Assembly (NCBI GenBank): GCA_025449735.1
Contig: JANWIV010000002.1
Coordinates: 124,001-188,000, forward strand
Length of the DNA stretch: 64,000 nucleotides
From: Candidatus Microgenomates bacterium
Lineage (GTDB): Bacteria; Patescibacteriota; Microgenomatia; UBA1406; HO2-37-13b
Direction of reading: 5' to 3'
Shown here: positions 9,797 to 40,909 of the stretch, piece after piece
Numbering within the stretch: position 1 is the stretch's first letter
Layout of the letters: each line of letters opens with the position of its first letter
The notes under the pieces: model-generated
Seen by the model: the letters and a program-made list of their open reading frames with translations, nothing else
Told to the model about the DNA's origin: nothing
Databases searched by the model: none
Translations under genes and position numbers: made by a program

Positions 9797-12649
9797 ATGT
9801 TAAATATTTTCAAAAAAATCCTCGATTATAATCAACGCGAGATTGATCGACTGCAAAAAATAGTCAGCCAAGTCAACGATTTGGAAGAAAAAGCCAAAGC
9901 GCTCAAAGATGCTGATTTTAAGACGGAAACCGATAAATTAAAATCCTCAATTCAATCTGACAAACAAACTCTTGATGAGGCATTACCATGGGCTTTTGCC
10001 TTGGTTCGTGAAGCGAGCCGCCGCACTTTGGGATTGAGGCATTTTGATGAGCAAGTGCTCGCTGGAGTCGCTCTTCATGAAGGTAAAGTTGCTGAGCAAA
10101 AAACTGGTGAAGGTAAAACCTTGACGGCAACTCTGCCGCTTTATCTCAATGCTTTGAATGGTAAAGGAGTCCATTTGGTGACTGTCAATGATTATTTGGC
10201 GAGGCGAGACGCTGGTTGGATGGGAATGGTTTTCAATTTTTTGGGTCTTACTACAAGCTCAATTATTGGTCAAAACCGATCATTTCTATTCGACGAATCC
10301 TATCAAGATGAAGGTGCCACTGACTGGAGGACTAAAAGTCTTAAATCTTGCTCTCGTCAAGAAGCTTATGCCGCGGATATTACCTATGGGATTAATTCTG
10401 AATTTGGTTTTGATTATTTGCGTGATAATATGGCCAAAAACCCAGAGAATTTGGCACAGCGAGGATATACCTACGCGATTATTGACGAGGTTGATTCGGT
10501 GCTCATTGATGAAGCTCGTACCCCACACATCATCTCCGCTCCTTTTGGCGATGATCCCCAAAAATATGCGCAGTATACCCAGATGATAAAGAGACTTGAC
10601 CCGGAGACTGATTATGTAATTGATGAGAAGATGCATACCGCTCACTTGACTGAAAAAGCACTTACCAAATTGGAAAAAATGCTCCATGTCGATAATATCT
10701 ATGAGGAGCAATTTGACACCGTTTTTCACCTCGAAGCGGCGCTAAAGGCCGATGCGCTATTTAAATTAGACAAAGATTATGTGGTCAGAAATGGTGAGAT
10801 AGTTATCGTCGATGAGTTTACCGGGCGGCTGATGCCAGGTCGGCGATGGAGCGAGGGGATTCATCAAGCGATTGAAGCCAAAGAAGGAGTGGCGGTACAA
10901 AAAGAATCAAAGACTCTGGCGACCGTGTCACTACAAAATTATTTCCGTATGTATGAGAAGCTTGGCGGTATGACTGGTACGGCGCAAACTGAAGCAGAAG
11001 AATTTCATAAAATCTACAAGCTTGAGGTCATCGTGGTGCCGACTCATGCGCCGATGGTCAGAGCCGATAAGCCGGATTATATTTATAAGACGACCCGCGG
11101 CAAGTATGGAGCGGTAGTTGAGGCGATTGCCAATTATCATATTGAAGGTCGCCCGGTACTAGTTGGCACTACCTCAATTGATAAAAATGAAATTCTTTCC
11201 AGCCTCTTAAAAAAGAAAGGGATTCCTCATCAGGTGTTAAATGCCAAAAATCACGAAGCTGAAGCGCAGATTATTGCCGATGCGGGTAGACGGGGCGCGG
11301 TCACTGTCGCTACCAACATGGCCGGCCGAGGAGTCGACATCATTCTTGGTGGTGAACCACCAAGTAAATTAAAAATGGAAAATGCGAAAGACAAAGCAGC
11401 TGCTGAAAAACAATTCAAAATTGAGGAGCAAAATTGGCAGAAAGATCATGATGAGGTGGTCTCGCTTGGTGGACTGGTTGTCATTGGTACGGAGCGACAT
11501 GAGAGTCGAAGAATTGACAATCAACTAAGAGGTCGATCAGGCCGTCAGGGAGATCCGGGGGAGACGAGATTTTTCGTCTCGCTTGAGGATGATTTGATGC
11601 GAATATTTGGCGGTGAACAAGTAGCGAAGCTGATGACCATGTTCAAAATTCCCGAGAATACTCCACTGGAGCACAGTATGGTTAGCCGGGCTCTTGAGCA
11701 AGCGCAGGTTAAGGTTGAAGGCTTCAACTTTGATGCCAGGAAAAATACTGTCGAGTATGATGACGTCTTAAATAAGCAACGAGAAATTATCTATGGCAAA
11801 CGTCGACAGGTACTTCTATCGGAAGAATTAAAGGGAGTCGAGAATATTACCAAAGAATCTTTTGATGAGGAGCTAGCTAATTTAGTCAATGCTTATGTTT
11901 CGACCCCCGAGACGCGAGATATTGAAAAATTCAATACAGAGGTATCCTTAATGTTTATGCAGGATCGAGAAAAGATCGCCAAAAAGCTTGATACCAAAGT
12001 CTATAGTGAGCTTGAAGAGAGAGCGAGAAAAATGTTTGATAGCGCCATTACAACCAAGAAAAAAAATTATGGCGAAGAACTATGGCATTTGCTCCTTCGC
12101 ACCGTTTACTTAGACACAGTCGACACTATGTGGGTCGATCATCTGACGGCAATCGAAGATTTACGACTTGGGGTGGGATTGCGCGCTCGCGCTCAGCTCG
12201 ATCCACTGACTGAATATAAAAATGAAGCTTTCTCAATGTTTGAGAGTCTACTTGGAAGCGTCAACTATGAGTTTGTGAGGCGCGTCATCAGAGTTGAAAT
12301 TCGCCAAGAGCAAGCCGAGAAAGAAATCGAAAGTCAGGACAATTTGCTTGAGGGGGCTAGCTTCCAGGCGCCTTCACAGGTAGGCGCGATTGAGGAGCGT
12401 AAGCAAGAAATAAGTCAAGAGGTTGCAACTCAAGCAACACCTTCAATGGCTGAAGAAATGACAGGTCTTACTGACAAACAAAGGAAAACAGAAGAGAAAT
12501 TGTCACAACCTATGGAAATAGGAGGGGTCAAATGGATTCCTCCAGGAGGCAGTCATAAAGAGCCCGGTCGCAATGACCCTTGCCCTTGCGGATCGGGTTT
12601 AAAGTACAAGAAATGCGGTTTGATTAACGCCCCTCAGCATAAAGGGTGA
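9797..12649 (+). CDS. secA: preprotein translocase ATPase SecA
   Basis: Motor that pushes unfolded precursors through SecYEG. Its 950 residues are slightly longer than the E. coli protein. Walker A is TGEGKT with K at about 107, and the DEAD-like Walker B is IIDEVDSVLIDEAR. The helicase-like second domain has VTVATNMAGRGVDIILGG and GTERHESRRIDNQLRGRSGRQGD split over one block. The C-terminal SEC-C zinc motif reads CPCGSGLKYKKC followed by G where a His or Cys is normal, so the fourth zinc ligand is missing or supplied by the His near the end. It follows an AT-rich repeat. Confidence 0.96.
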   Translation: MLNIFKKILDYNQREIDRLQKIVSQVNDLEEKAKALKDADFKTETDKLKSSIQSDKQTLDEALPWAFALVREASRRTLGLRHFDEQVLAGVALHEGKVAEQKTGEGKTLTATLPLYLNALNGKGVHLVTVNDYLARRDAGWMGMVFNFLGLTTSSIIGQNRSFLFDESYQDEGATDWRTKSLKSCSRQEAYAADITYGINSEFGFDYLRDNMAKNPENLAQRGYTYAIIDEVDSVLIDEARTPHIISAPFGDDPQKYAQYTQMIKRLDPETDYVIDEKMHTAHLTEKALTKLEKMLHVDNIYEEQFDTVFHLEAALKADALFKLDKDYVVRNGEIVIVDEFTGRLMPGRRWSEGIHQAIEAKEGVAVQKESKTLATVSLQNYFRMYEKLGGMTGTAQTEAEEFHKIYKLEVIVVPTHAPMVRADKPDYIYKTTRGKYGAVVEAIANYHIEGRPVLVGTTSIDKNEILSSLLKKKGIPHQVLNAKNHEAEAQIIADAGRRGAVTVATNMAGRGVDIILGGEPPSKLKMENAKDKAAAEKQFKIEEQNWQKDHDEVVSLGGLVVIGTERHESRRIDNQLRGRSGRQGDPGETRFFVSLEDDLMRIFGGEQVAKLMTMFKIPENTPLEHSMVSRALEQAQVKVEGFNFDARKNTVEYDDVLNKQREIIYGKRRQVLLSEELKGVENITKESFDEELANLVNAYVSTPETRDIEKFNTEVSLMFMQDREKIAKKLDTKVYSELEERARKMFDSAITTKKKNYGEELWHLLLRTVYLDTVDTMWVDHLTAIEDLRLGVGLRARAQLDPLTEYKNEAFSMFESLLGSVNYEFVRRVIRVEIRQEQAEKEIESQDNLLEGASFQAPSQVGAIEERKQEISQEVATQATPSMAEEMTGLTDKQRKTEEKLSQPMEIGGVKWIPPGGSHKEPGRNDPCPCGSGLKYKKCGLINAPQHKG

Positions 12650-12669
12650 TACGGGAGAGAATTTAGTGT

Positions 12670-12675
12670 TACAAT
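12670..12675 (+). promoter_or_regulatory. -10 box six bases before a GTG start
   Basis: TACAAT, six bases before the GTG at 12682. Confidence 0.45.
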
Positions 12676-12681
12676 AAATCT

Positions 12682-13242
12682 GTGAAAGTACTTCTTTTGA
12701 ATGGTAGTATGGCCAGAAAATCCCATACTAAAATTCTTTTGCTACACATTGAAACTCTTTTTAAGGAAAAACAGGTTGAGACTATTTTTTGGGATTTAAA
12801 AGAAAAACCGCTTCCATATGTTGACCCTTTTTATCACCATGATCCTTACAAAAATCCTGATCTCGTAGTCAAAGAATTTGTATCTATAGTCCTGAGCGTC
12901 GATGGCATTGTCCTTGGGAGTCCACTTTATCATGGCTCTTATTCTGGTGTGCTTAAAAACGCGATAGACAACTTGGGTCCAGATGGATTCCGCGATAAAT
13001 GGATTGGTTTTGCTGGCAATGCGGGTGGGGCAAGGGCTGATCATGTGCAACATACTCATTTGCGCAATGTAGTCAAAACGCTTTATGGCTATGCCACACA
13101 AACTCAAGTCGGCACTCACAAAGGAGATTATAAGGAGCATGATGATCGATATGAGTTGATTGATGATGATATTAAAGCCCGTTGCCTTAGACTGGTTGAC
13201 GAGATGATAAAATTACTGAGCATATGGACAAAGACAAAATAA
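12682..13242 (+). CDS. NAD(P)H-dependent FMN reductase-like flavoprotein
   Basis: Flavodoxin-fold protein of 186 residues with the NADPH-dependent FMN reductase layout: a first strand and FMN phosphate loop MKVLLLNGSMARKSHT, the family signature GSPLYHGSYSGVLKNAIDN in the middle, and a WIGFAGNAGGARA strand-loop. It probably reduces FMN, quinones or azo-type compounds; the true substrate is unknown. It starts with GTG at 12682, six bases after a TACAAT box. The next gene starts inside its last codons (13224), so the two form an operon. Confidence 0.85.
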   Translation: MKVLLLNGSMARKSHTKILLLHIETLFKEKQVETIFWDLKEKPLPYVDPFYHHDPYKNPDLVVKEFVSIVLSVDGIVLGSPLYHGSYSGVLKNAIDNLGPDGFRDKWIGFAGNAGGARADHVQHTHLRNVVKTLYGYATQTQVGTHKGDYKEHDDRYELIDDDIKARCLRLVDEMIKLLSIWTKTK

Positions 13243-14183
13243 AATCAATCCTTAATAAACCCCATCGCGCCGCGCTCACCCTTCATGAGCGACCTGATGG
13301 TGACTCGATTGGAAGCAATTTAGCGATGGCGGCGGCACTGCGCCAGATGGGCTCTACCGCTCAAGTATATTCAATAGACAAGCCGGACCCTAAATTTGCA
13401 TTTCTCTCCGGTTTTGATGACATTAAAGTAAATGATGGTGCCATAGCATGGGAGGCTTATGATTATTTTTGGGCGCTTGATATGTCTTCAGTTGAAAGAA
13501 ACAATCGCATGGGTCAAAAAATAGCCCTGCCAAATCAATTAAATGTAATTGTCATTGATCATCATCGCACCAACACCGGTTGGGGGAAATATAATCATGT
13601 CGAAATAACCGCTTCAACTACCTTGGTTTTATATAAATTATTTACATCATGGGGAGTGAAGATCGACAAAGACATTGCGACCGCCTTATTTGTCGGTCTC
13701 GCCACTGACACTAGTTTTTTTCAAAATGACAGCACCAATGCCGACGTATTCAAAGTCGCTCAAGAGCTGTTGCAGTTGGGGGTAGAGTACGATAAAATTT
13801 CATATGAATTAAATAGGCAACTGACAATGCCTGATATCAAGTTTTATTCAGAAATGCTTTCAAAAGTCCAAATAAATGAGGAAAAGCAGGTGGCCTATAT
13901 AGCCGTCACGCAAGAAGAATGGGAAAGGTTTGGCGCTGGACCAGAAGAATATGATTATATTAAGGAATATTTAAAAAAACTAAAAGGAACAAGACTCGGA
14001 ATAATGTTTACTGAGGAAAAGCAGGGTTATGTCAGGTTAGGATTGCGGTCCCGAGATGCTGACTATGATGTCTCTGCACTTACCCAGAAATTTGGTGGCG
14101 GTGGCCACAAAGCCGCCGCTGGCGCGAGTCTCTCAGGTAAGACATTAAACGAAGCAATCGAAGCCGTCATTGCGGAAATCTAA
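13224..14183 (+). CDS. nrnA: DHH/DHHA1 phosphoesterase, NrnA-like
   Basis: Predicted bifunctional oligoribonuclease and 3'-phosphoadenosine 5'-phosphate phosphatase, finishing RNA decay by degrading nano-RNAs. In its 319 residues the DHH motifs are visible in order: HERPDGDSIGSN near residue 22, ALDMSS, VIDHHRTN and GLATDTSFF, then a DHHA1 domain ending in FGGGGHKAAAGA. It overlaps the preceding flavoprotein gene by 19 bases. Its stop codon overlaps that of the convergent enolase gene. The exact substrate is inferred from the family. Confidence 0.88.
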   Translation: MDKDKIKSILNKPHRAALTLHERPDGDSIGSNLAMAAALRQMGSTAQVYSIDKPDPKFAFLSGFDDIKVNDGAIAWEAYDYFWALDMSSVERNNRMGQKIALPNQLNVIVIDHHRTNTGWGKYNHVEITASTTLVLYKLFTSWGVKIDKDIATALFVGLATDTSFFQNDSTNADVFKVAQELLQLGVEYDKISYELNRQLTMPDIKFYSEMLSKVQINEEKQVAYIAVTQEEWERFGAGPEEYDYIKEYLKKLKGTRLGIMFTEEKQGYVRLGLRSRDADYDVSALTQKFGGGGHKAAAGASLSGKTLNEAIEAVIAEI

Positions 14184-15421
14184 ATTTCATTCTTCTCAAT
14201 TTCTACTAGTCTATTATATTTGGCTAACCGTTCACTTCGGCTCATTGAACCGGCCTTGATGAAATCAGCGCCACAGGCATAGCTCAAGTCAGCGATAAAG
14301 CTATCTTCAGTCTCCCCTGAGCGATGGGAAATAATTACTTTCCAACTAGCAGATATCGTCATTTTGATGGCGGCAACTGTCTCATAAAGACTACCGATTT
14401 GATTAGGCTTGATTAGCACGGCATTGGTAGCGCGTACCTTGACCCCTTGTTCAATTCTTTTGGGGTTGGTGGTATAAAGGTCATCGCCGATGACGAGACA
14501 CTTGCTACCCAGTTGGGCGGTAAATTTGGTAAAAGAATCCCAGTCTTCTTCTGCAAAAGGGTCTTCTACGGAGAGCAAATGGTAATTAGTCATTAGCGAT
14601 TGGTAGTAGTCAATGAGCTCCGAACTAGACAAAAATTTATTCTCTTTTTTCAGATGATATTTACCATCTTTAAAAAATTCGCTTGCGGCGACGTCGATTC
14701 CAAAGTCAAAATCTTGACTATGGTTAGATTTATTTGCCGCCTCAAGAATCAAATCAAAAGGAGCCGTATTTGAGTCTAGATTGGGGGCATAGCCACCTTC
14801 ATCTCCTTTAAGAGTTGACAAGCCTTTACTTTCTAGTAAAATTCCTAAAGCATTAAATATTTCACTTCCAATTTCTAGGCTTTCTTGTGGACTTTTCCCT
14901 CTTGGGATAATTTTGTATTCTTGGATATCAAAAGCCCAGGCGGCGTGGGCACCACCGTTGACAATATTTATCATAAAACGAGGGAAGCTTGGCTTGATAT
15001 CAGCAAAATAATATTCATTAAGCACTTGCCAAAGGGGGAGGTGTTGATATTTAGATAAAGCACGAGCACAAGCCAGGGAGACTGAAAGAATCGCATTGGC
15101 ACCAAGCGCTGATTTGTTTTCCGTATAATCAATGCCAATCATTGTTTTATCGATATTCGACAGTTCCTCAATCGGTAGCCCGACTATCGCTTCGGCGATT
15201 TTGTCATTAACATTCTCAATGGCTCGATTGACACCTTTACCATCAAAATGCTCACTCTCATTATCACGAAGCTCTACTGCCTCATATTTGCCAGTACTTT
15301 TGCCCGAAGGAACCGAAGCGGTACCGATGGTACCGTCTTCAAGCTCGATTGAGGTTTCCAAGGTTGGATTACCCCTTGAATCAAGAATTTGAATGGCGGA
15401 GATTTTTTTTATATTACTCAT
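14180..15421 (-). CDS. eno: enolase
   Basis: Interconverts 2-phosphoglycerate and phosphoenolpyruvate in glycolysis. The ATG at 15421 gives 413 residues starting MSNIKKISAIQILDSRGNPT, the standard opening; an upstream ATG at 15463 would add a tail derived from the repeat at 15425-15482 and is rejected. Active-site landmarks are present: SVEDPFAEEDW, GDDLYTTN, LIKPNQIGS (catalytic Lys) and SHRSGETEDSF. The last bases overlap the stop of the convergent nrnA. Confidence 0.97.
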   Translation of the reverse strand: MSNIKKISAIQILDSRGNPTLETSIELEDGTIGTASVPSGKSTGKYEAVELRDNESEHFDGKGVNRAIENVNDKIAEAIVGLPIEELSNIDKTMIGIDYTENKSALGANAILSVSLACARALSKYQHLPLWQVLNEYYFADIKPSFPRFMINIVNGGAHAAWAFDIQEYKIIPRGKSPQESLEIGSEIFNALGILLESKGLSTLKGDEGGYAPNLDSNTAPFDLILEAANKSNHSQDFDFGIDVAASEFFKDGKYHLKKENKFLSSSELIDYYQSLMTNYHLLSVEDPFAEEDWDSFTKFTAQLGSKCLVIGDDLYTTNPKRIEQGVKVRATNAVLIKPNQIGSLYETVAAIKMTISASWKVIISHRSGETEDSFIADLSYACGADFIKAGSMSRSERLAKYNRLVEIEKNEI

Positions 15422-15424
15422 ATT

Positions 15425-15482
15425 GTTATCCTGGTTTGTCCAGGATCTAGATTCTGGAGTCACTTTCGTTCCCCAGAATGAC
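15425..15482. repeat. GTCATCCTG-type palindromic repeat, copy 1
   Basis: Runs from gttatcctgg to cagaatgac. It holds two small hairpins, atcctggtttgtccaggat and attctgg..cccagaat. It shares the words ccaggatctagattctg and cagaatgac with 33500-33615 and fills the enolase-exonuclease gap. Confidence 0.7.
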
Positions 15483-15494
15483 TTCGTGTAAATT

Positions 15495-16415
15495 TCAGAA
15501 CAAGCCTAATTGATCTTTGCTGTCAATACTCTTTTCCTCAACTACTGGTTTTGAGGCGGGGGTATTGAAATATCGGCGCGACAGGGTCCTAAATTCATAT
15601 TTTTCAAAAAAAGGTTTCAAATTTTCGTTGTAGCCAGAAAATTTGGCATCACTCAGGGTAATTTCTAAATCGGCATTTTTTTCAAGAAGGGCTAATTTTT
15701 TCGCTAGTTTTGCCATTTCAGCACCATCTTTTAATTTTTGTGCTGTTTTTGGGTCGATATTGTCGAGATTTTTATAAATATTCTCGACTGTGCCCCATTT
15801 GCTAATAAGCAAGACGGCATTTTTCGGTCCAATTCCAGTGACACCTTTATAGTTGTCTGAAGGGTCGCCAGCAAGAGATTTGAAGTCAGCAATGTGCTCG
15901 GGAAATACCCCAAACTTCTCTTCAACCGCTTTCTTGTCATAAAGCTTGCCGTTGCTAAAGCCAATTTGAGGGGTCAAAACAAAAGAATCCGAGTCAACGA
16001 GCTGAAACAAATCACGGTCACCAGACAAAATAATGGTTTTTAATTTTTCTTTATGAGCCAAAGTGTCAAAAGTGGCGATAAGATCATCAGCCTCTAGGCC
16101 AGGTTTTTCGAGATGGACGATTCCAGCCGCCTCAAGGAACTCCTTAACCATTGGAAACTGAGCAACAAGGGATCTTTCCGTTTCTGGTCTTTGGGCTCGA
16201 TACTGCTCAAAAATTTTGTCACGGAAAGTGGGTTCTGGTGAATCAAGGCAAACAATCAAATGAGAGGGTGAATAATCAGAGACCACCTTGTAGAGAATTG
16301 AAACAAAGCCATAAAGGGCATTGGTGGGCACGCCATCTTTGGTCTTGAAATCAGGCAAGGCATGATAGGCACGGTGAATGAGCGCATTACCATCGATTAG
16401 AAGCAGAGTATTCAT
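15495..16415 (-). CDS. stand-alone 5'-3' exonuclease, PolA N-terminal type
   Basis: The 306 residues correspond to the 5' nuclease domain of DNA polymerase I without a polymerase part. Such proteins remove RNA primers and flaps. Visible are LLIDGNALIHRAYHA at the start, LEADDLIATF with the metal-binding acidic cluster, ILSGDRDLFQLV, and the helix-hairpin-helix part AGDPSDNYKGVTGIGPKNA. The C-terminus is a short SPKTD-like tail ending DQLGLF. Whether the genome has a separate polymerase A gene cannot be seen here. A GATAAT-like box lies about six bases before the ATG. Confidence 0.92.
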   Translation of the reverse strand: MNTLLLIDGNALIHRAYHALPDFKTKDGVPTNALYGFVSILYKVVSDYSPSHLIVCLDSPEPTFRDKIFEQYRAQRPETERSLVAQFPMVKEFLEAAGIVHLEKPGLEADDLIATFDTLAHKEKLKTIILSGDRDLFQLVDSDSFVLTPQIGFSNGKLYDKKAVEEKFGVFPEHIADFKSLAGDPSDNYKGVTGIGPKNAVLLISKWGTVENIYKNLDNIDPKTAQKLKDGAEMAKLAKKLALLEKNADLEITLSDAKFSGYNENLKPFFEKYEFRTLSRRYFNTPASKPVVEEKSIDSKDQLGLF

Positions 16416-16493: not shown

Positions 16494-18362
16494 TTATTTT
16501 TTAGTTTTGTTTTCAACCAAGCTTAGGAACTCTTCATCATCAAGGCTTTCTTTTTCAATCAAAGCCTCCGCGACTCGATCAAGCGCGGCGCGATTCTTTT
16601 TTAAGATTTCGTGAGCATCATTATGAGCTTGATCCAAAATTTTCTTCACTTCCTCATCAATACGAGCTCTCATCCCCTCACTGATATTTTCCTGCTGCCA
16701 ATATCCTTTACCCCAATCGGTGACATCAAAACTAGCGCCCAGCGTTATCGGGCCAAGGTTGCTCATACCATAGTCAACTATCATGGCGCGAGCAATGCGA
16801 GTGGCTTGGACAAAATCATTGGCGGCACCGGTCGTCACTTCGGAGAAAACGATTTCTTCTGCGGCGCGGCCGCCCATCATCGTGATAATCATTTGCAGCA
16901 GATGAGTTTTAGTTTCATGGAGCCTGTCTGCAGATGGAGGGACTAAGGTATGACCAAGAGACATGCCACGACTAACTATTGAGATGCGATGAACAGGGTC
17001 CATATTGGCCTGAAATTGGTTGACAATAGCGTGCCCGGCTTCATGATAAGCAGTAATCTTTTTATCTTGGTCTGATTGCAGTCGTTTTTTCTCGGGCCCC
17101 ATTTTTACTTTAGTAGCCGCTTCCTCAAGTTCGATCATAGAAATGGCCTTTTTGCTAGCACGGGCCGCCAAAATTGCCGCTTCATTCAGCATATTGCCAA
17201 TATCGGCTCCTGAGAAACCAACGGTTCGTTTGGCAATTTTTTCCCAAGAAACCTTTGGTGCCATTGGTTTACCTTTGGCATGAATGGCAAGAATAGCACG
17301 ACGCCCCTCAATATCAGGATAATCAATGATCACCCGCCTGTCGAACCTTCCGGGTCTGAGCAATGCTGAGTCGAGCAGATCGCCTCTATTGGTAGCGGCA
17401 ATGACTATCACGCGATCATTGGGTTCGAAGCCATCCATCTCAACTAAAATTTGGTTTAAGGTTTGCTCGCGCTCATCATGGGCTGGCATCGTCCCCACAG
17501 ACCTGGTGCGACCAATGGCATCAATCTCATCAATGAAAATGATTGAGGGAGCATTTTTTTTCGCCGTAGCAAAGAGATCTCTTACTCGAGCGGCGCCAAT
17601 GCCTACCAGCATTTCCATAAATTCCGAGCCGGCAATGGAGAAAAAAGGTACGCTGCTCTCACCAGCAACTGCTTTGGCAAGAAGGGTCTTACCGGTGCCG
17701 GCGGGACCGACCAAAATGACCCCTTTGGGTGATCGAGCGCCGAGCTTGGCATACTTGCGAGGGTGTTTTAGGAAATCGACGATTTCTTCAAGTTCCTTTT
17801 TGGCCTCATCAACGCCAGCGACATCCTTGAAGGTGATTTTGGACATTTCTTTTGAATAAAGTTTGCTTTTCGCTTGTCCAAAAGAAAAAATCGAATCTTG
17901 AGCCCCTCGAGCTTGACGAAAAATAAAGGCAAAAAAAGCAATCATCAAGACAATTGGCAATAAATTAGTCAAGGCGGAAGTCCAAAATCCATCATTTTCG
18001 GTACTTTTAACTTCAATATCGACATTCTTAGCTTCGATATCGTTATCTTTAAGTAGGGTAAATATTCCCTCACTTAGCTCCTTGGTGGTCTGGCTTTCCG
18101 AACCTGAATTATATAATACGGTAATTGATTCTCCTTTGACTTCCAGTCGTTTCACCTTACCCGATTTAATTTCACTAAGCACTGTTGTCAGTGGTTTTGT
18201 CTCAATTGGAGAGTTCAAATTATTTGAGGATAAGTAAAGCGAAACAAAGAACAATCCTAAAAAAAGCGCGATAAAGATAGTCTTGATATTGAGCTCAAAT
18301 TTGAATCCGGCAATCAGACTCTTTTTTTCTGGTACTTTATTTTCGCTTTGCATAGAGGACAT
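16494..18362 (-). CDS. ftsH: ATP-dependent zinc metalloprotease FtsH
   Basis: Membrane-anchored AAA+ protease for membrane-protein quality control. In its 622 residues, transmembrane segments lie at about 28-45 and 131-148 with an extracytoplasmic domain between them. Walker A is GPAGTGKT at 219-226 (the usual second Pro is Ala), and the second region of homology is GRFDRRV. The zinc site is HEAGH at 440-444, and a further ligand lies downstream in the AAEEIVF region. The start is at 18362, but an ATG nine bases downstream lies at a better leaderless distance from a TAAAAT box. It ends before an AT-rich spacer. Confidence 0.96.
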   Translation of the reverse strand: MSSMQSENKVPEKKSLIAGFKFELNIKTIFIALFLGLFFVSLYLSSNNLNSPIETKPLTTVLSEIKSGKVKRLEVKGESITVLYNSGSESQTTKELSEGIFTLLKDNDIEAKNVDIEVKSTENDGFWTSALTNLLPIVLMIAFFAFIFRQARGAQDSIFSFGQAKSKLYSKEMSKITFKDVAGVDEAKKELEEIVDFLKHPRKYAKLGARSPKGVILVGPAGTGKTLLAKAVAGESSVPFFSIAGSEFMEMLVGIGAARVRDLFATAKKNAPSIIFIDEIDAIGRTRSVGTMPAHDEREQTLNQILVEMDGFEPNDRVIVIAATNRGDLLDSALLRPGRFDRRVIIDYPDIEGRRAILAIHAKGKPMAPKVSWEKIAKRTVGFSGADIGNMLNEAAILAARASKKAISMIELEEAATKVKMGPEKKRLQSDQDKKITAYHEAGHAIVNQFQANMDPVHRISIVSRGMSLGHTLVPPSADRLHETKTHLLQMIITMMGGRAAEEIVFSEVTTGAANDFVQATRIARAMIVDYGMSNLGPITLGASFDVTDWGKGYWQQENISEGMRARIDEEVKKILDQAHNDAHEILKKNRAALDRVAEALIEKESLDDEEFLSLVENKTKK

Positions 18363-20531: not shown

Positions 20532-20885
20532 TCAATCCGAGGGAGGCAGTTTGTCAATATCATCCTCAAGAGTTAACTTTCCTTTCAAAAGGGGATCGTC
20601 GGTAAATTCGGCAACGATTGCCCTGACGAATCGATTTAATAACTCAACGTGTTCTTCAGTTCTATCGAGTACCAGCTCCATTGATGGATATATTCCCATA
20701 ACGCGATAAATAAGTTTATCAGCAACTGTCAAATTGCGGCTTAATATTAAATATATTGGCGGGGTTCCTTCTGGAAGAATTCCTTTATCTAGGTTGTCGA
20801 TTTGCTCGGCTGAGAGACTGTTTCGCCACTTGAAATATAATTGCCATTCGACATCTGAATCTGGTGGGCTCGATTCTTTTGTCAT
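20532..20885 (-). CDS. small acidic orphan protein
   Basis: Unrecognised, 117 residues, strongly acidic at the C-terminus (KLTLEDDIDKLPPSD) and with an N-terminal PPDSDVEWQLYFKWRNSLSA segment. No membrane segment. Reality is supported by a consensus TATAAT box six bases before the ATG and by its clean position between tsaD and the next gene. The helical middle (EEHVELLNRFVRAIVAEF) suggests a protein-binding role, but nothing specific can be said. Confidence 0.6.
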   Translation of the reverse strand: MTKESSPPDSDVEWQLYFKWRNSLSAEQIDNLDKGILPEGTPPIYLILSRNLTVADKLIYRVMGIYPSMELVLDRTEEHVELLNRFVRAIVAEFTDDPLLKGKLTLEDDIDKLPPSD

Positions 20886-20952: not shown

Positions 20953-21360
20953 CTATCCTCGGCGAGGATAATTGTGTCGAGAGTAGTTGATCTTCATTTG
21001 ATTTAAGAAAGCTTCTAGCGATGCAGAAATTTTATAAACTTTTTCAACGTCGTAAGGTGAATAGTGATCTCTTATCAAAACTCCCGAAGCTCTTTCAGCG
21101 ACACCCCAGCCTTCCTGATCAAGTTTGTATAATTTACAATGATCAAAATACTCACCTTGAAAATTACCACTCACTCCGCCTTCTTCATTCCAACCACCGA
21201 CATCAAAGCAAGAATAGGCTTTATTTCCTTCGGTAATTACTAGCCAATGTGTTAATAATTCACGATCAATCCAGGCTCGATAACCATTATTATCAAGATC
21301 GGGTCTAGGTAAATTAAAAAAAACCATGCTGTCAGGCGCTATTTGTTCTTTTTCCGTCAT
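20953..21360 (-). CDS. small orphan protein
   Basis: Unrecognised protein of 135 residues from the ATG at 21360 (a GTG one codon earlier is possible). It is rich in aromatic residues and Asp/Glu, with DNNGYRAWIDRELLTHWLVI and a GGWNEEGGVSGNFQGEYFD block in which Gly and Trp recur. No signal peptide. It has its own TATAAT box five bases before the ATG. It lies between another orphan and the tRNA genes. Confidence 0.6.
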   Translation of the reverse strand: MTEKEQIAPDSMVFFNLPRPDLDNNGYRAWIDRELLTHWLVITEGNKAYSCFDVGGWNEEGGVSGNFQGEYFDHCKLYKLDQEGWGVAERASGVLIRDHYSPYDVEKVYKISASLEAFLNQMKINYSRHNYPRRG

Positions 21361-21365
21361 CACTT

Positions 21366-26114: not shown

Positions 26115-27274
26115 TAGATTTCGTTAATTAAATTCATAAAGTTAATCTCAAATATTTTTCGACTAAATCTTTTTACGTTTACTTGCCCCTCACTCATAGT
26201 ACTTTGCCTAAGATTGTAAGCTTCTTTCTCAAATATTTCAAGCGCGCTTGAAAGGGATTTTTCAGTTTGACTGTCAAAAAATATACCGGTTTTGCCATCA
26301 AGCACGGTTTCAGTGGCACCACCCTTGCCATAGGTGATGACGGGGCAGCCAAAAAATTGTGCTTCAAGGCTAACCAAGCCAAAATCCTCCTCTTGGGGCA
26401 TAATTAGCGCCTGTGCTTGGGAATATAATTTCCCTAATCCTTCGTCATTGACGTTTTCAACAAAACTGACATTACTGCAAGCAATGCTTTTTAGTATTTT
26501 TTGTTCTGAGCCATTTCCAACGATAATTAGTTTTTGATCAATTAAACGTTTAAATGTTTCGACGACAAGATCTACCTTTTTATACGGCTCAAGTCGACTA
26601 ACAACTAGATAGAATTTAAATCTTTTATTCTTGTCATTCTGAGTGACAAACGAAGAATCCCATTGAGATCCTTCGCTTTGCTCAGGATGACGACGATATG
26701 TTTCGGATTTTACATTTCTCCAGTATTCAATATCAAATGGGGGATAGACGACTTTTGAGTCTAGGTTATAAACATTTTTAATTCGTTTTTGCACAGTTTT
26801 TGATATCGCGATAATATTGTCGGGGCGCTTGGCGGCTATTTTGTCCCAACGTTTTAAATGTTTGATGATTAAATTTGTAAACAAAGGTTTTTGATAATTA
26901 TCTTCATGTGACCACAAAAATCGCGTCGGTGTCAGGCAAATGTTTATATGTTTGGTTGGTGGGCGAGTTATTATCCCTTTGGCAAAACTGGAGCTTATTG
27001 AGATTACCAGGTCATAGTTTGAAAAGTCAAATGATTCAAAAGCGAGCGGATAGAGGGGAGTTGAGAGTTTCCTTGAATTTTTGATGAAGTTAGGTAGCTT
27101 CTCTATAAAACTAGTGCGAGGTTGAAGTTCCTTTGCCCATTCAGCGCGTTTGTAGTCAAAAACCGAAGTATACCAGTCGGCCTTAGGAAACATCTCGTGC
27201 AGGGTCAGCAGCACTCTCTCTACCCCTCCCCAAGAATCCATCCAATCATAAACAATGGCGGTTTTTTTATTCAT
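26114..27274 (-). CDS. GT4 glycosyltransferase with repeat-derived linker
   Basis: GT-B fold transferase of 386 residues. The opening AIVYDWMDSWGGVERVL and the retaining GT4 motif EEDFGLVSLEAQFFG are clear; it may transfer mannose, given the neighbouring GDP-mannose enzyme. Between the two Rossmann domains, after DIEYWRNVKSETY, about 25 residues containing HPEQSEGS and ending before KRFKFYLVVSRLEPYKK are encoded by an inserted palindromic repeat (26633-26691) that stays in frame. It starts 40 bases from the divergent orphan gene. Confidence 0.93.
   Translation of the reverse strand: MNKKTAIVYDWMDSWGGVERVLLTLHEMFPKADWYTSVFDYKRAEWAKELQPRTSFIEKLPNFIKNSRKLSTPLYPLAFESFDFSNYDLVISISSSFAKGIITRPPTKHINICLTPTRFLWSHEDNYQKPLFTNLIIKHLKRWDKIAAKRPDNIIAISKTVQKRIKNVYNLDSKVVYPPFDIEYWRNVKSETYRRHPEQSEGSQWDSSFVTQNDKNKRFKFYLVVSRLEPYKKVDLVVETFKRLIDQKLIIVGNGSEQKILKSIACSNVSFVENVNDEGLGKLYSQAQALIMPQEEDFGLVSLEAQFFGCPVITYGKGGATETVLDGKTGIFFDSQTEKSLSSALEIFEKEAYNLRQSTMSEGQVNVKRFSRKIFEINFMNLINEI
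26633..26691. repeat. GTCATCCTG-type repeat inside a glycosyltransferase gene
   Basis: Ends are gtcattctga and tcaggatgac, reverse complements with one mismatch. It contains the word tccttcgctttgctcagga. The reading frame crosses it without a stop, coding for the HPEQSEGS-containing peptide. Confidence 0.8.
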
Positions 27275-27314: not shown

Positions 27315-27680
27315 ATGACCTTGCCCGAGGTAAATCTGCATAAAGATTATAGTCCAGCGGAATTTAAATACGATTATATTGAACAAGCGTGGGGGGCCTT
27401 CAGCGGAGACCATTCACATGGTCGATACTTTTTCATCGCGAAACTTACAGTCAGTCTCCGAAATGGTATTTGGATGGCAATGCTTAGAAGACCAGTTAAG
27501 GAAGATTTATCATACGTAGATGTTCCATTTAACTATGACGGTTTTGAGGAAAGTGGTCTTGCAAATATAGCAATTTTTAATAGAAGCTTTGAACTTGGAT
27601 GGAGAATTAGAGAGATTTCAGTTGACTCATTGCCTACGGTTATAGATGAATATTTGGCTTCGTTCTTAGGTGAAAAGTAA
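27315..27680 (+). CDS. small orphan protein
   Basis: Unrecognised, 121 residues, aromatic-rich (FKYDYIEQAWGAFSGDHSHGRYFFI), with no signal peptide or membrane helix. It is the only plus-strand gene in this stretch of minus-strand glycosyltransferases and has its own -10 box at leaderless distance. A hairpin tctaatcc/gggttaga (27690-27708) follows between it and the convergent gene. No function can be proposed. Confidence 0.6.
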   Translation: MTLPEVNLHKDYSPAEFKYDYIEQAWGAFSGDHSHGRYFFIAKLTVSLRNGIWMAMLRRPVKEDLSYVDVPFNYDGFEESGLANIAIFNRSFELGWRIREISVDSLPTVIDEYLASFLGEK

Positions 27681-28885: not shown

Positions 28886-29782
28886 TTACATCTTGCTTTT
28901 TAGGTCAACGAAAAAATGAACTACTTTGTTTATTAGCGGGTTATTTTTAGGAGCATAATGCTTGTCATAAAAGATTTTCATCGCTGAATAAAAGTGGCTT
29001 CTTGTAATCTCTTCGATTTCAGTTGTGCCGCTTTTGAGCCCGCTGACTTTCTTCAAGTGGACCACATATTGGGTGGGATAATACATGATTTTATAACCTA
29101 ATTTCTTAATTCGAAATGACAGGTCTAGGTCTTCGCCATACATAAAATAATCCTTATCAAAACCTTTGAGCTTGTCAAATAGCTCTTTTCGGGTGAGATA
29201 AAAGGCACCACTGGGGCTATCGATTTCATGTATGGTGTTGAGGTCAAGATGCTTGAGATGATAGCCCCCAAGATATCTCGGTAAAAAAGGGGCTCTGCCA
29301 GTCAGTTTTTCCAGTCCCGCATAATAGGTAGCGGCTCGCCAGACATTGGGAAATCCGCGATGGCTTGCCGGGTCTATCCTGCCATCAGGTAATAGCACTT
29401 TTATCGTGAGGGCGCCGACAATCGGATTGTTATCCATATATTTGATTAATGAATCAAAATTAACGTCCTTCACGATGACGTCGGAGTTCAAAAGCAGGAT
29501 ATAGCGACCTTTGGAAACCTCAGCTGCCTGATTATTAGCCGCCCCAAAACCGAGATTCGTCTTGTTTTCAACAAGATTTAAGATTAAAGATTTATGATTA
29601 AAGTTTTTTTGTAAACTTTTTATCATTTTGATTGACTTGTCAGAAGAGGCATTATCAACCACAATGACTTCAATTTTGCTGTTTTGCTCCCGCTTTATAA
29701 ATTCAAATAAAGTTTGTAGACATTCCTTCGTCACGTCATGAGTGTTGAAAGAGATAATTATAATTGAAAGATCAGTGGTCAT
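28886..29782 (-). CDS. GT2 glycosyltransferase
   Basis: GT-A fold, probably inverting, rhamnosyltransferase-like. From the ATG at 29782 it has 298 residues; the seven extra residues from 29803 come from a repeat. It opens DLSIIIISFNTHDVTKECL; the nucleotide-binding VDNASSDKS and the DXD-like LLNSDVIV follow, with GFDKDYFMYGEDLDLSFRIK near the C-terminal third. Before NLGFGAANNQA there is an unusual FNHKSLILNL stretch encoded by AT-rich repeat-like DNA (29572-29605). It belongs to the minus-strand polysaccharide genes. Confidence 0.93.
   Translation of the reverse strand: MTTDLSIIIISFNTHDVTKECLQTLFEFIKREQNSKIEVIVVDNASSDKSIKMIKSLQKNFNHKSLILNLVENKTNLGFGAANNQAAEVSKGRYILLLNSDVIVKDVNFDSLIKYMDNNPIVGALTIKVLLPDGRIDPASHRGFPNVWRAATYYAGLEKLTGRAPFLPRYLGGYHLKHLDLNTIHEIDSPSGAFYLTRKELFDKLKGFDKDYFMYGEDLDLSFRIKKLGYKIMYYPTQYVVHLKKVSGLKSGTTEIEEITRSHFYSAMKIFYDKHYAPKNNPLINKVVHFFVDLKSKM
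29572..29605. repeat. AT-rich repeat-like tract within a GT2 gene
   Basis: aagatttaagattaaag and tttatgattaaag are tandem near-copies. On the coding strand they give FNHKSLILNL at a position where relatives normally have a short loop. Confidence 0.45.
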
Positions 29783-29852
29783 AAAGCGTGTATCGTGAAA
29801 CATGAAGCATAATTTTTAAACATAATAATTCAAAATAATTTCGTTCAATTCT

Positions 29853-29868: not shown

Positions 29869-29923
29869 AAAAAACTGCGGAGACCTCGGTTGGTTCCCGT
29901 TGAGGGTACCCAACCGAGGTCTC
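29869..29923 (-). terminator. strong rho-independent terminator of the small-protein cassette
   Basis: A 14-bp perfect stem (gagacctcggttgg at 29880-29893 with ccaaccgaggtctc at 29910-29923) and an inner ccc/ggg stem. On the minus strand it is followed after five bases by TTTTTT (29874-29869). It sits 35 bases after the last gene of the cassette. Confidence 0.85.
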
Positions 29924-29957
29924 GCTCAAGCTGTAAGAGTATTATGCTTTCGAGAGT

Positions 29958-30377
29958 TTACGGCACTGGTGCCGTCGCACAGGTCGTAGGGTCCATATAG
30001 CGCATCTCTTGTGGGTCGAGATCGTATACAGCACGCTTCCAGGCAGCACAGACGTCGGCATTGCCATTGACGTAGATCACCGGATGCTTATCGACGATGC
30101 CAGTCAGAAATTGATGGGGGTCGGTGATTCGCATCTCCCGACGGCCATGAGAGGCGATGTATACATCGCCTCGGAGCGGGGACAACTCTATCCTATCGTA
30201 CTCCAATAGATGATACTGTCTATTGGCGAGTTCGTCTAGATGCTGAACTGTAGCCTTCCGTTCCCCTTCAATTTGCACGGTACTTACTATGTGACACCCG
30301 GCGCCCAAGACCCCAATTACGATGAAGATTGTAGCGCCGATGGCGAGGAACCGTTCAGCAATTCTGGATTCTGGCAT
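29958..30377 (-). CDS. small membrane-anchored protein, cassette gene 3
   Basis: Unrecognised. From the ATG at 30377 it has 139 residues; this start is chosen because AGGAG lies eight bases upstream. One hydrophobic segment at about 10-27 (FLAIGATIFIVIGVLGAGC) anchors it, and the remainder should be outside. The exported part contains KATVQHLDELANRQYHLLEY, an RGDVYIASHGRREMRI strand region and two Cys in the last third. Base composition is GC-richer than in neighbours. It is followed by a strong terminator. Function unknown; it probably acts at the cell surface with the two genes before it. Confidence 0.7.
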   Translation of the reverse strand: MPESRIAERFLAIGATIFIVIGVLGAGCHIVSTVQIEGERKATVQHLDELANRQYHLLEYDRIELSPLRGDVYIASHGRREMRITDPHQFLTGIVDKHPVIYVNGNADVCAAWKRAVYDLDPQEMRYMDPTTCATAPVP

Positions 30378-30390
30378 GGACGTATCTCCT
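30378..30390 (-). promoter_or_regulatory. Shine-Dalgarno site of cassette gene 3
   Basis: AGGAG eight bases before the ATG at 30377. Such sites are rare elsewhere in the window. Confidence 0.7.
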
Positions 30391-30426
30391 AGTTGGTAGT
30401 TGACTATGCAAGTCGACTTCGGATGT

Positions 30427-30858
30427 CTACGGACAAGGATAGGTTGGTAACTCAAGAATCTGTTGCGCTAGGAAGATCGACTGGGAGCGGCATAAAAAAA
30501 ACTGGCCGCCAAGCTTTACCCACTCGCCATCTTCCTTTCGTACCTGTGCCGCAAAGGTATCGTAGTCTTCTTGTTTTTCAAATACGATCCCAACTGCCGC
30601 ACTACAGATGGGGGGTAGAACGATGACGAAATGCCACTGGTCGCAGGACGAAGGTGGAGTGTCGAGATCGGACACTGACACATATGTCCTTAACTCCTCT
30701 TGCTCCCATCCCAAGATCGGAAGAAAGAGATGTTGATCGAAGATCGGTTGTGGCGCTGGTGGCGGGTATGCCTGTGCTTCAACCGAATTGTAATTAGTCT
30801 TGGTCGTGACCAAAACGGTGATGACCGAAATGGCCAAGACGGCGATAAGCCTGCGCAT
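30427..30858 (-). CDS. small secreted protein, cassette gene 2
   Basis: Unrecognised, 143 residues from the ATG at 30858. That start has GAGGAG seven bases upstream; an ATG two codons earlier would leave only one base of spacing. A signal peptide is evident: MRRLIAVLAISVITVLV, then a polar stretch ending EAQA before YPPP, which fits signal peptidase I cleavage. The mature part starts with a Pro-rich segment and has four Cys (SSCDQW, PPICSA, FFLCRS and the C-terminal PCP), which could form two disulfides outside the cell. It lies 35 bases after gene 1 and 49 before gene 3. Confidence 0.7.
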   Translation of the reverse strand: MRRLIAVLAISVITVLVTTKTNYNSVEAQAYPPPAPQPIFDQHLFLPILGWEQEELRTYVSVSDLDTPPSSCDQWHFVIVLPPICSAAVGIVFEKQEDYDTFAAQVRKEDGEWVKLGGQFFLCRSQSIFLAQQILELPTYPCP

Positions 30859-30893
30859 GGTCATGCTCCTCGATTGATATCTGGTTTCAGATG

Positions 30894-31325
30894 TTACTTA
30901 CTGCGACACTCATCATAGCTAAGTACGGCCTGGGTGGTTTCCGCGTCGTCCCAGACAGCACAAAGCTGATAGAGTTGTGTGTCACCGGTCTCTAATCCAT
31001 ACAACACTAACTTCTGAGTTCGCAAATCAAACTTCTCCAATAGTGCTGCAGGATCTTCAAATGATCTGATTTCGTCGACAAAAGGCCGATGGTAATCCTT
31101 TACGACTTTATAGTGGTCTTGTTCTATGAAGACGAAGTTTGTGGCGATCAGGCTGTATACGCCAATGACTTTATTTCGTTCGGCTTTCGCCTCCAGTTGC
31201 GCCAGTTGTTGTTGGGCTTGCTGATGATGCTGAACTGCTTGTTCTTCGGGTGACATTGATGGCCCGTCACCGCATCCCAAAATTCTAGTTAAGGCTAAAG
31301 CGACGATGATGAGTCGAGTATGCAC
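30894..31325 (-). CDS. probable lipoprotein, cassette gene 1
   Basis: Unrecognised. The GTG at 31325 is preferred because AGGAG lies eight bases upstream; it gives 143 residues. The N-terminus HTRLIIVALALTRILGCGDG reads as a short lipoprotein signal peptide with Cys at about residue 18, though Leu at -2 is not the commonest residue. Then comes a Gln-rich helical stretch (EEQAVQHHQQAQQQLAQLEA) and a folded domain ending YDECRSK. The longer frame from 31391 would lose the signal peptide and is rejected. First gene of the GC-richer cassette. Confidence 0.7.
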   Translation of the reverse strand: MHTRLIIVALALTRILGCGDGPSMSPEEQAVQHHQQAQQQLAQLEAKAERNKVIGVYSLIATNFVFIEQDHYKVVKDYHRPFVDEIRSFEDPAALLEKFDLRTQKLVLYGLETGDTQLYQLCAVWDDAETTQAVLSYDECRSK

Positions 31326-31529
31326 GAGTCTTTCTCCTTGAGCGGTGTCCGGCAGCAGCCGGGTTGAATTCGTTTCAGATGAAACGGACATTCTAAATTC
31401 GAATATTCAAGTTTAAATTGCCCGTTTCATCAAATACTCTATATTTACAGCTTATTATCAAAGTACATATCTCAATTAATCAGTTGCAGAAAGCAAAATC
31501 AGCACTAAGTAAGTGAGAAATTATGCTAG

Positions 31530-31540: not shown

Positions 31541-32800
31541 ATGAAATTTGCAAAATCAAAACTATGGGGTATTTTTATCGTCTTAATTGCGAGTATCGTT
31601 ATTTTTTTAAAATTTACTCAAATCCCAGCGCATTTTGCATTTGATGAGGTTGAGTTTGCAAGGCTCGCTTTGTCGCTCAAAGACAGTCCTTATAGCGTCT
31701 ATAGCACTCTGGCGACTGGTCATTCGACGCTTTATTTTTATGTAATTCTTGCCTCATTTTATCTATTTAAAGTGTCAAGTTTTGCGCTTCGCCTGCCTTC
31801 AGCCATTTTTGGGGTATTGTCTGCCCTTGTTTTTTACAAATTAATGGTTGGGCTATTTATCAATAAAAAGATCGAACTAAAATTCAAAAAAGCGATGTTG
31901 ACAGTGCCTTTAGCTTTTCTCCTGACGCTCATTTTGGTTAGCTCTAGGTGGTTTTTTAGTTTTGCGAGATTTGCATTTGAACCAACATTTTTATTATTTC
32001 TTGAGCTGTCATCACTTTATTTTGTTTTTAAATTTGTCTCATCAGAAAAATGGCGTCATTTAGGTATTTCAGCCATATTTGCCGGACTAGCCTATCATTC
32101 CTACACTCCAGGAAGAATTTTTTTCATTATTCCCATGCTCACCGTGATTCTACTAACTAAAAACAAATTTAAAAATATTTCCTCATATTTAATTATTTTG
32201 TTTATGGTTATGCTGCCATTAATTGTCTATTTATGGCAACACCAAGATATTCGAATTAGAGAACAAATGTATATTTCAAACACCGAGCTGACAATTGAAG
32301 ATAAAATCGCTTTTTTTGAAGCAAATACCCTAAATAACATCAAAATGCTTTATGTACCCGGGCAAGGTGACGGCAACGGACGACATAATTATCCATTGAA
32401 ACCAGCGATTAATCCGATTTTGTTTGCTTTATTTGTATTGGGATCAGCAGTTGCGCTTTCTAAACCGCGAAACAAAACACATGCTATTTTTTGGATATAT
32501 CTTGGAATCAGTTTTGCACCAACATTGCTGACCTATCCCTGGGAAAATCCTAATATGTTGCGTACTTACACGATGATTCCGGGTCTTGTATATTTTATTG
32601 GGGTTGGACTGTCAAGATCTATTGAGGTGATTAACGCAAGGTTTAACAAGCCATTGTGGCGAAGTATTGTAGTTGCTGGTTTATTGCTTATTGTTTGTGC
32701 ATCAAGTTTGTATGAACTGAGGACTTATTTCTACTATCAAGCCCGCGATGTCATCCCCCATGCATTTGATGAAGAGCTTAATCTTAAAAATTTACATTAG
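31541..32800 (+). CDS. GT-C fold membrane glycosyltransferase (GT39/ArnT-like)
   Basis: Polytopic membrane protein of 419 residues from the ATG at 31541, with roughly ten hydrophobic segments. The first loop after helix 1 has AHFAFDEVEFARLALSL, where the acidic pair is typical of polyprenyl-phosphate-sugar-dependent transferases (GT39/83). It would add a sugar from a lipid carrier on the outer face of the membrane. The donor is unknown. The gene is divergent from the small-protein cassette and ends at a perfect palindrome. Confidence 0.82.
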   Translation: MKFAKSKLWGIFIVLIASIVIFLKFTQIPAHFAFDEVEFARLALSLKDSPYSVYSTLATGHSTLYFYVILASFYLFKVSSFALRLPSAIFGVLSALVFYKLMVGLFINKKIELKFKKAMLTVPLAFLLTLILVSSRWFFSFARFAFEPTFLLFLELSSLYFVFKFVSSEKWRHLGISAIFAGLAYHSYTPGRIFFIIPMLTVILLTKNKFKNISSYLIILFMVMLPLIVYLWQHQDIRIREQMYISNTELTIEDKIAFFEANTLNNIKMLYVPGQGDGNGRHNYPLKPAINPILFALFVLGSAVALSKPRNKTHAIFWIYLGISFAPTLLTYPWENPNMLRTYTMIPGLVYFIGVGLSRSIEVINARFNKPLWRSIVVAGLLLIVCASSLYELRTYFYYQARDVIPHAFDEELNLKNLH

Positions 32801-40414: not shown

Positions 40415-40909
40415 ATGGATCTAAAATTTTACACCGTGGTGGTTAGTTCTATTCAAGGTGAATCAGGCACTACTTTACACTTGGAATACATGAGGCTTCT
40501 TACCCAAGGAAATAAGACGATTAATATCTATGGTACGACACCAGTAAATCCAGAAATTTCTGAGCAGCTATCAAAAAGATACGGGGTACCCTTAGTTTTT
40601 TTAGACGGTGAATCGCAGCTAGTAGTTTTTGGATTTGAAACTCAGAGCGAAGTCGCTCAAGAACAAAAACATTTAAGTAGAGTTTTAGATATGCTCCAGG
40701 CGGCAAAACAAACCAAAGAACAAGAAGTTGAGGTTGAGTTAGATAATTATAGAGCACTGGTCCATCCGACAACTCGAAGAAGACTTTTGCAAGACTCAGA
40801 ATTTGCAGATACATATAGACAGTTTGAAGCTGCTATTCGTACCCATGTGCTCTCTGAAACTCTTCAGTTGCCTGAGGGACAGACGGGGACTTCACTCGAA
40901 AGACGTTAA
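40415..40909 (+). CDS. orphan soluble protein
   Basis: Unrecognised, 164 residues. The N-terminal half has alternating strands (FYTVVVSSIQGESGTTLHLE, KTINIYGTT, GVPLVFLDGESQLVVFGF). The C-terminal half is helical and charged (QEQKHLSRVLDMLQAAKQTKEQEVE), suggesting a coiled coil or helical dimer. No signal peptide. It has a strong promoter (TTGACA-18-TATAAT) and a leader of about 25 bases. It lies directly before glyS, which has its own -10 box. Confidence 0.65.
   Translation: MDLKFYTVVVSSIQGESGTTLHLEYMRLLTQGNKTINIYGTTPVNPEISEQLSKRYGVPLVFLDGESQLVVFGFETQSEVAQEQKHLSRVLDMLQAAKQTKEQEVEVELDNYRALVHPTTRRRLLQDSEFADTYRQFEAAIRTHVLSETLQLPEGQTGTSLERR

What the first reader, a model, noticed from the sequence alone, without database searches (positions are those of the whole stretch)
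29869..31325. Three-gene cassette of small exported proteins with foreign features
A probable lipoprotein, a secreted Cys-containing protein and a membrane-anchored protein lie in tandem on the minus strand, spaced 35 and 49 bases. Each has an AGGAG site 7-8 bases before its start, unlike the rest of the window. A strong hairpin terminator closes the unit. Two lines I counted (30001-30060 and 30241-30300) are 58% and 50% G+C, against 40% and 27% for two lines outside (32041-32100 and 26761-26820). None of the three is recognisable. It interrupts the glycan locus and could be a surface effector, adhesion or immunity unit.
Basis: partly seen in the sequence, partly recalled or inferred. Interest (0 to 1): 0.65.

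Follow-up and report, generated by a model that had tools for sequence, protein, structure and literature searches.

The report
Acquired three-gene cassette of exported orphans
A small, self-contained block of three genes for exported proteins of unknown function sits inside a sugar-polymer locus of an ultra-small bacterium; it looks acquired from elsewhere and turns out to be one of several such blocks scattered through this genome and its relatives.

Summary
Three minus-strand ORFs (31325-30894, 30858-30427, 30377-29958) are spaced 35 and 49 bases, each with AGGAG 7-8 bases before its start, and a very strong terminator at 29880-29923 follows. G+C is 50%, against 40% for the genome; flanking gaps are 20% and 29%. 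Among 290 long ORFs of the genome only 7 (2.4%) have such a site, although the 16S anti-SD is intact; codon usage is also atypical. No relative of any of the three was found in Pfam, NCBIfam, PHROGs, PADLOC, PDB, phages, plasmids or 380 phylum genomes.

The trio is not alone. The same genome has at least four more GC-rich, SD-led orphan islands ending in strong hairpins, and islands of the same style occur in other Microgenomatia, so a chimeric assembly is unlikely. Best reading: an acquired, autonomous ("moron-like") operon whose products act at the cell surface. Acquisition is well supported; donor, mobility and function are not. Gene 1 is only a weak lipoprotein candidate; effector, adhesion or immunity roles remain untested.

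A side finding is a ~110-nt covarying palindromic element, absent from Rfam, upstream of some sister islands but not of this trio.

The parts
30894..31325 (-). Gene 1, 143 aa, GTG start; short N-terminal hydrophobic stretch ending ILGC (weak lipoprotein or secretion signal), then a Q/E-rich probable helix and a C-terminal domain with two Cys
   Evidence: no relatives:
31334..31339 (-). SD site AAGGAG of gene 1, spacer 8
30427..30858 (-). Gene 2, 143 aa, ATG start; N-terminal signal-like helix, Pro-rich linker, 4 Cys
   Evidence: fold pLDDT 47; no relatives: (only hit is antisense to gyrA)
30866..30870 (-). SD site AGGAG of gene 2, spacer 7
29958..30377 (-). Gene 3, 139 aa, ATG start; one N-terminal transmembrane helix (residues 10-28), outer domain with 2 Cys
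   Evidence: fold pLDDT 54; no relatives:
30386..30390 (-). SD site AGGAG of gene 3, spacer 8
29880..29923 (-). Terminator hairpin (GAGACCTCGGTTGG/CCAACCGAGGTCTC) closing the unit
29869..29874 (-). T-run of the terminator
31378..31431 (-). Abutting 27-nt inverted repeat (81% complementary), a long hairpin in the presumed 5' leader; unique in the genome
   Evidence: leader fold z -4.8
31349..31362 (-). Small hairpin CCGGC-TGCT-GCCGG just before the gene 1 SD
31401..31522 (.). AT-rich (29% G+C) divergent intergenic region that must hold the promoter; no convincing consensus promoter found

Best explanation
The trio is an acquired, self-contained transcription unit ('moron-like' orphan island) in a Microgenomatia (Roizmanbacteria-related) genome. 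Shown: it has its own distinct composition and codon usage, its own strong Shine-Dalgarno sites facing an intact anti-SD, a hairpin leader and one of the strongest terminators of the genome, which closes the unit before the downstream glycosyltransferase genes; sister islands of the same anatomy but unrelated proteins lie elsewhere in this genome and in relatives. Inferred: it was taken up by horizontal transfer, is co-transcribed leftwards from a promoter in 31401-31522, and its three products are exported (one secreted with Cys pairs, one membrane-anchored, one lipoprotein-like or secreted), acting together at or outside the envelope, most likely in contact with other cells or as part of the surface coat. 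The biochemical activity is not known; the surface role is a guess of about 30%.
For: Composition and borders; SD 3/3 against 7/290; anti-SD CACCTCCTTTC at the 16S 3' end (L041); codon usage nearer to other islands than 99% of native test genes and coding-type GC1>GC3>GC2; terminator rank and z; sister islands C1:71697-72818, C1:74932-76317, C3:86607-87788, C4:23728-26231; same style in G006, G056, G233, G146 with strong and often nested terminators; no relatives in 380 phylum genomes or in the order's 83 genomes; export features. Published context: Patescibacteria novel families are enriched in transmembrane or signal-peptide proteins, 53% against 33% (PMC10849945).
Against: No donor, no empty site and no mobility gene or direct repeats were found at the borders; flanking genes are not adjacent in relatives, so insertion cannot be dated. 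Gene 1 composition is only mildly atypical (z 2.4). No convincing promoter. A native, fast-evolving, highly expressed gene class could mimic several of the features.
Confidence: 0.68

Rival explanations
1. Native lineage-specific genes: a fast-evolving class of exported proteins, highly expressed, in which strong SD sites, higher G+C and strong terminators are selected rather than imported.
For: Such islands recur across the class; the anti-SD is kept; the terminators are tailored to each unit.
Against: G+C differs from island to island (46-63%) and departs from the host even at synonymous sites; islands share no protein families with each other, as independent acquisitions would; core genes of the class use almost no SD.
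Confidence: 0.18
2. A cassette or remnant of a specific mobile element (integron-type cassette, plasmid or virus of these bacteria), not just generic transfer.
For: Standard anatomy (leader, SD-led orphans, terminator) repeated at many loci; a covarying palindromic element lies just upstream of some sister islands; Y1/RAYT-type transposases present in all five genomes tested.
Against: The trio lacks that element (the only two credible hits in this genome are at islands D and E); the terminator's outer stem is not an attC core pair; no viral, phage or plasmid relative; no phage genes among the neighbours.
Confidence: 0.15
3. Chimeric assembly: a 1.5-kb piece of another organism joined into this contig.
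For: Sharp composition borders; reads were not available.
Against: Two joins within 1.5 kb, each in an intergenic AT-rich stretch, would be needed; the ends coincide with a leader and a terminator; islands with the same anatomy occur in independently assembled genomes.
Confidence: 0.04

Closest known systems
Phage 'moron' genes (autonomous accessory units; from general knowledge)
   Same: Own expression signals and terminator, composition unlike the surroundings, accessory genes often altering the cell surface
   Different: Sits in a bacterial glycan locus with no phage genes around it; no promoter proven
Integron gene cassettes (from general knowledge)
   Same: Mostly orphan genes with their own SD, compositionally distinct, enriched in exported proteins, hairpin at the 3' end
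   Different: Three genes under one terminator, hairpin followed by a T-run, no attC-type core pair at the stem ends, no array
Uncharacterised novel families of Patescibacteria (FESNov catalogue, PMC10849945)
   Same: Novel transmembrane or signal-peptide proteins are over-represented in this phylum
   Different: The trio was found in one genome only and is organised as an SD-led GC-rich island, which the passages read do not describe
GC-atypical ORFan genomic islands of bacteria (from general knowledge)
   Same: Atypical composition and no homologues
   Different: Very small, tidy operon with strong translation signals in a lineage whose core genes hardly use SD

Membership tests
Horizontally acquired ORFan island | Base composition and codon use differ from the host | tested here: met
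Horizontally acquired ORFan island | Absent from close relatives, present in a donor or mobile element | tested here: inconclusive
   Absent from the order's 83 genomes and 380 phylum genomes; no donor found; no same-genus genome held
Horizontally acquired ORFan island | Empty site in a relative | tested here: inconclusive
   Flanking gene order not kept in the relatives examined
Phage moron | Own terminator and distinct composition | tested here: met
Phage moron | Own promoter | tested here: inconclusive
   Only weak consensus matches upstream
Phage moron | Located in a phage or prophage genome | tested here: not met
   Ten neighbouring proteins are glycan-pathway enzymes
Integron gene cassette | attC site with RYYYAAC...GTTRRRY core pair at the hairpin ends | tested here: not met
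   Read from the sequence: outer stem is GAGACCTC/GAGGTCTC, followed by TTTTTT
Integron gene cassette | Integron integrase and cassette array | not tested
   Integrase not searched for
Known anti-phage defence system | Match to a PADLOC model | tested here: not met
Bacterial lipoprotein (gene 1) | Lipobox [LVI][ASTVI][GAS]C after a hydrophobic signal | tested here: inconclusive
   Only relaxed ILGC; hydropathy 1.41, Arg in the h-region

The most novel reading that the evidence does not exclude
Microgenomatia carry a class-wide compartment of autonomous, mobile orphan-gene cassettes: GC-rich, SD-led units of exported or membrane proteins ending in strong, often nested terminators, inserted among core genes that hardly use SD. 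The retained anti-SD would then serve largely to translate these acquired cassettes, which would be the organism's toolkit for contact with host or rival cells. The window trio is one cassette.
Probability: 0.25. Interest if true: 0.78.

Novelty: new variant of a known kind. Interest (0 to 1): 0.5.

Why it matters
How these tiny, probably host-dependent bacteria interact with other cells is a long-standing open question, and their exported proteins are mostly unrecognisable. A simple signature (strong SD plus high G+C plus strong terminator in a genome whose core genes hardly use SD) gives a way to list acquired, exported gene units across the class and to test whether they are gained and lost, expressed and surface-located.

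Tried and rejected
Homology for the trio: Pfam, NCBIfam, PHROGs, PADLOC, PDB sequences, phages, plasmids, viral contigs, 84,980 genome species by peptide patterns and whole genomes of the class, order and phylum: nothing. The class hit G054 (E 0.0036) is antisense to gyrA and the order hit G371 has stops inside; both rejected. Weak names such as Lpp-like (E 0.019) and Tic22 (E 0.065) are far below cut-offs. Structure models of genes 2 and 3 were too poor for a fold search, so none was run. A shared leader for all islands was considered: hairpin + GCNCCTTGACAAT is shared by islands D and E here and by an island in G006, partly by B and C, but not by the trio, so it does not explain the trio. 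Integron attC rejected on the stem ends. Flanking-gene synteny gave no empty site. A Chloroflexota donor, suggested by Pro-rich linkers and HLFLPIL-like ends, is memory only and was not tested.

Full report
CHECK OF THE OBSERVATION. The three ORFs, their spacing (35 and 49 bases), the AGGAG sites at 7-8 bases and the closing hairpin are all present as described. The quoted line compositions are exact. Measured over the whole unit, G+C is 50.0% against a genome mean of 40.0% with sd 3.2% for 1500-base windows, with flanking gaps of 20% and 29%. The terminator folds at -37.7 kcal/mol (z -4.7) and ranks about sixth among 2,443 hairpin-plus-T-run candidates in 726 kb (overlapping candidates are counted, so the rank is approximate).

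FOREIGN CHARACTER. Of 290 long ORFs in the genome only 7 (2.4%) have AGGAG or GGAGG at 5-10 bases from a start in the first 30 codons; control motifs give 0.3-1.0%. The same holds in 17 stretches from other genomes of the class (3 of 133). Yet the 16S rRNA ends in a normal anti-SD (CACCTCCTTTC, L041). The trio's 3 of 3 is therefore not chance (about 1e-5). A codon model trained on other islands, without the trio, scores the three genes at z +2.4, +4.4 and +4.9 relative to held-out native genes. The three ORFs show the coding pattern GC1>GC3>GC2.

THE TRIO IS ONE OF MANY. Scanning the genome for GC-rich and SD-led ORFs brought out C1:71697-72818 (373 aa, secreted), C1:74932-76317 (five small, mostly membrane proteins), C3:86607-87788 (393 aa) and C4:23728-26231 (several small genes), most ending in an exceptional hairpin terminator. 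A further GC-rich secreted gene (C3:230233-232560, a putative lipase with fn3) lacks a clear SD. In relatives, the same style occurs in G006 (a Roizmanbacteria genome: its contig of 39,764 bases matches L055), G056, G233 and G146, with lipoprotein-like, secreted and membrane proteins. Sixteen queried island proteins, including the trio, share no sequence similarity with each other or with other fetched loci. G233 and G146 were sampled without selection; G006 and G056 were chosen because they carry the palindromic element described below.

NO HOMOLOGUES. Nothing was found for the trio in curated families, solved structures, phages, plasmids, viral contigs, 380 phylum genomes, or the order's 83 genomes. 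The genome contigs and viral scans use exact peptide patterns and see close relatives only, so distant donors remain possible.

EXPORT. Gene 3 has a clear N-terminal transmembrane helix (19-residue hydropathy 2.38); gene 2 has a signal-like start followed by a Pro-rich linker and 4 Cys; gene 1 has a short hydrophobic start ending ILGC, which is only a relaxed lipobox with an Arg in the hydrophobic stretch. Structures predicted without an alignment are unreliable.

MECHANISM. Shown: autonomous translation signals, distinct composition, strong leader hairpin and terminator. Inferred: leftward co-transcription from a promoter in the divergent AT-rich gap, independent translation of each ORF by SD pairing, termination before the glycosyltransferase gene at 28886-29803, export of the products, and joint action at the surface. 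The neighbours are glycan-pathway enzymes, so a role near the surface polymer is plausible but not shown.

RIVALS. A chimeric assembly is unlikely because islands of the same anatomy recur in independently assembled genomes and both joins would have to fall at the leader and the terminator; reads were not available. A native fast-evolving class of exported proteins is the main rival. A specific mobile cassette system is the most novel reading; for the trio no repeats, integrase link or empty site were found.

SIDE FINDING. Leaders of islands at C4 (L018) and C3 (L039) share a hairpin plus GCNCCTTGACAAT, and the same 15-mer CTGCAAGGGTCTGCG recurs in G006 and in two Berkelbacteria. A covariance model from four sequences finds the ~110-nt element in 35 of 300 class genomes, up to seven copies each. 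Its pairs covary strongly: 142 cells with double changes against 40 in shuffles and 22-39 in slid controls (the alignment was fitted to the model, so this leans towards the structure). It gave no Rfam match. It often lies just upstream of genes, with its final TTGACA placed as a -35 box, and a diverged copy lies in frame inside a leuS-like gene, which suggests a mobile palindromic element; Y1 transposases are present in all five genomes tested. The trio does not carry it.

VERDICT. Observation confirmed. The unit is most likely an acquired autonomous orphan operon and a member of a recurrent class of islands. Function is unknown; a surface role is plausible at about 30%.

Noticed in passing
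L039:12623-12746 (-), L018:6395-6514 (-), L063:1501-1577 (-), L056:4532-4643, L058:5734-5845 and about 45 further places in the class: A ~110-nt strongly covarying palindromic element (CCCGCCAGA...TCTGCAAGGGTCTGCG-hairpin-CCTTGACAA), absent from Rfam, in 35 of 300 Microgenomatia genomes and in Berkelbacteria; its end often supplies a -35 box upstream of genes such as dnaK-, lon- and lexA-like ones and it precedes some GC-rich orphan islands.
   Followed up: partly
L081:1501-1624: A diverged copy of that element lies in frame inside the start of a leuS-like gene, as a mobile palindromic insertion would.
   Followed up: partly
L041, 16S rRNA 3' end (minus strand); all long ORFs of the genome: The 16S rRNA keeps a normal anti-SD (CACCTCCTTTC) although only about 2% of long genes here, and in 17 stretches of the class, have an SD site.
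   Followed up: yes
L014:11697-12818 (-), L014:14932-16317 (+), L032:6607-7788 (-), L018:3728-6231 (-), L039:10233-12560 (-): Other GC-rich orphan islands in the same genome; most have SD-led genes and strong hairpin terminators.
   Followed up: yes
L092:5482-9126 and 10961-13337; L097:7160-8716; L113:8912-10195 and 16923-17690; L111:9740-10787 and 15303-15668; L052:7025-8452: Islands of the same style (AAGGAG-led, GC-rich, exported or membrane orphans, several with strong nested terminators) in other genomes of the class.
   Followed up: partly
window 20532-20885 (-), 20953-21363 (-), 27315-27680 (+), 40415-40909 (+): Small ORFs with no convincing Pfam match but native composition and no SD, scattered between core genes; a different kind of orphan from the trio.
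   Followed up: no
L014:6556-6798 (-): The only Y1 (IS200/RAYT-type) transposase found in this genome lies about 5 kb from two of the GC-rich islands.
   Followed up: no
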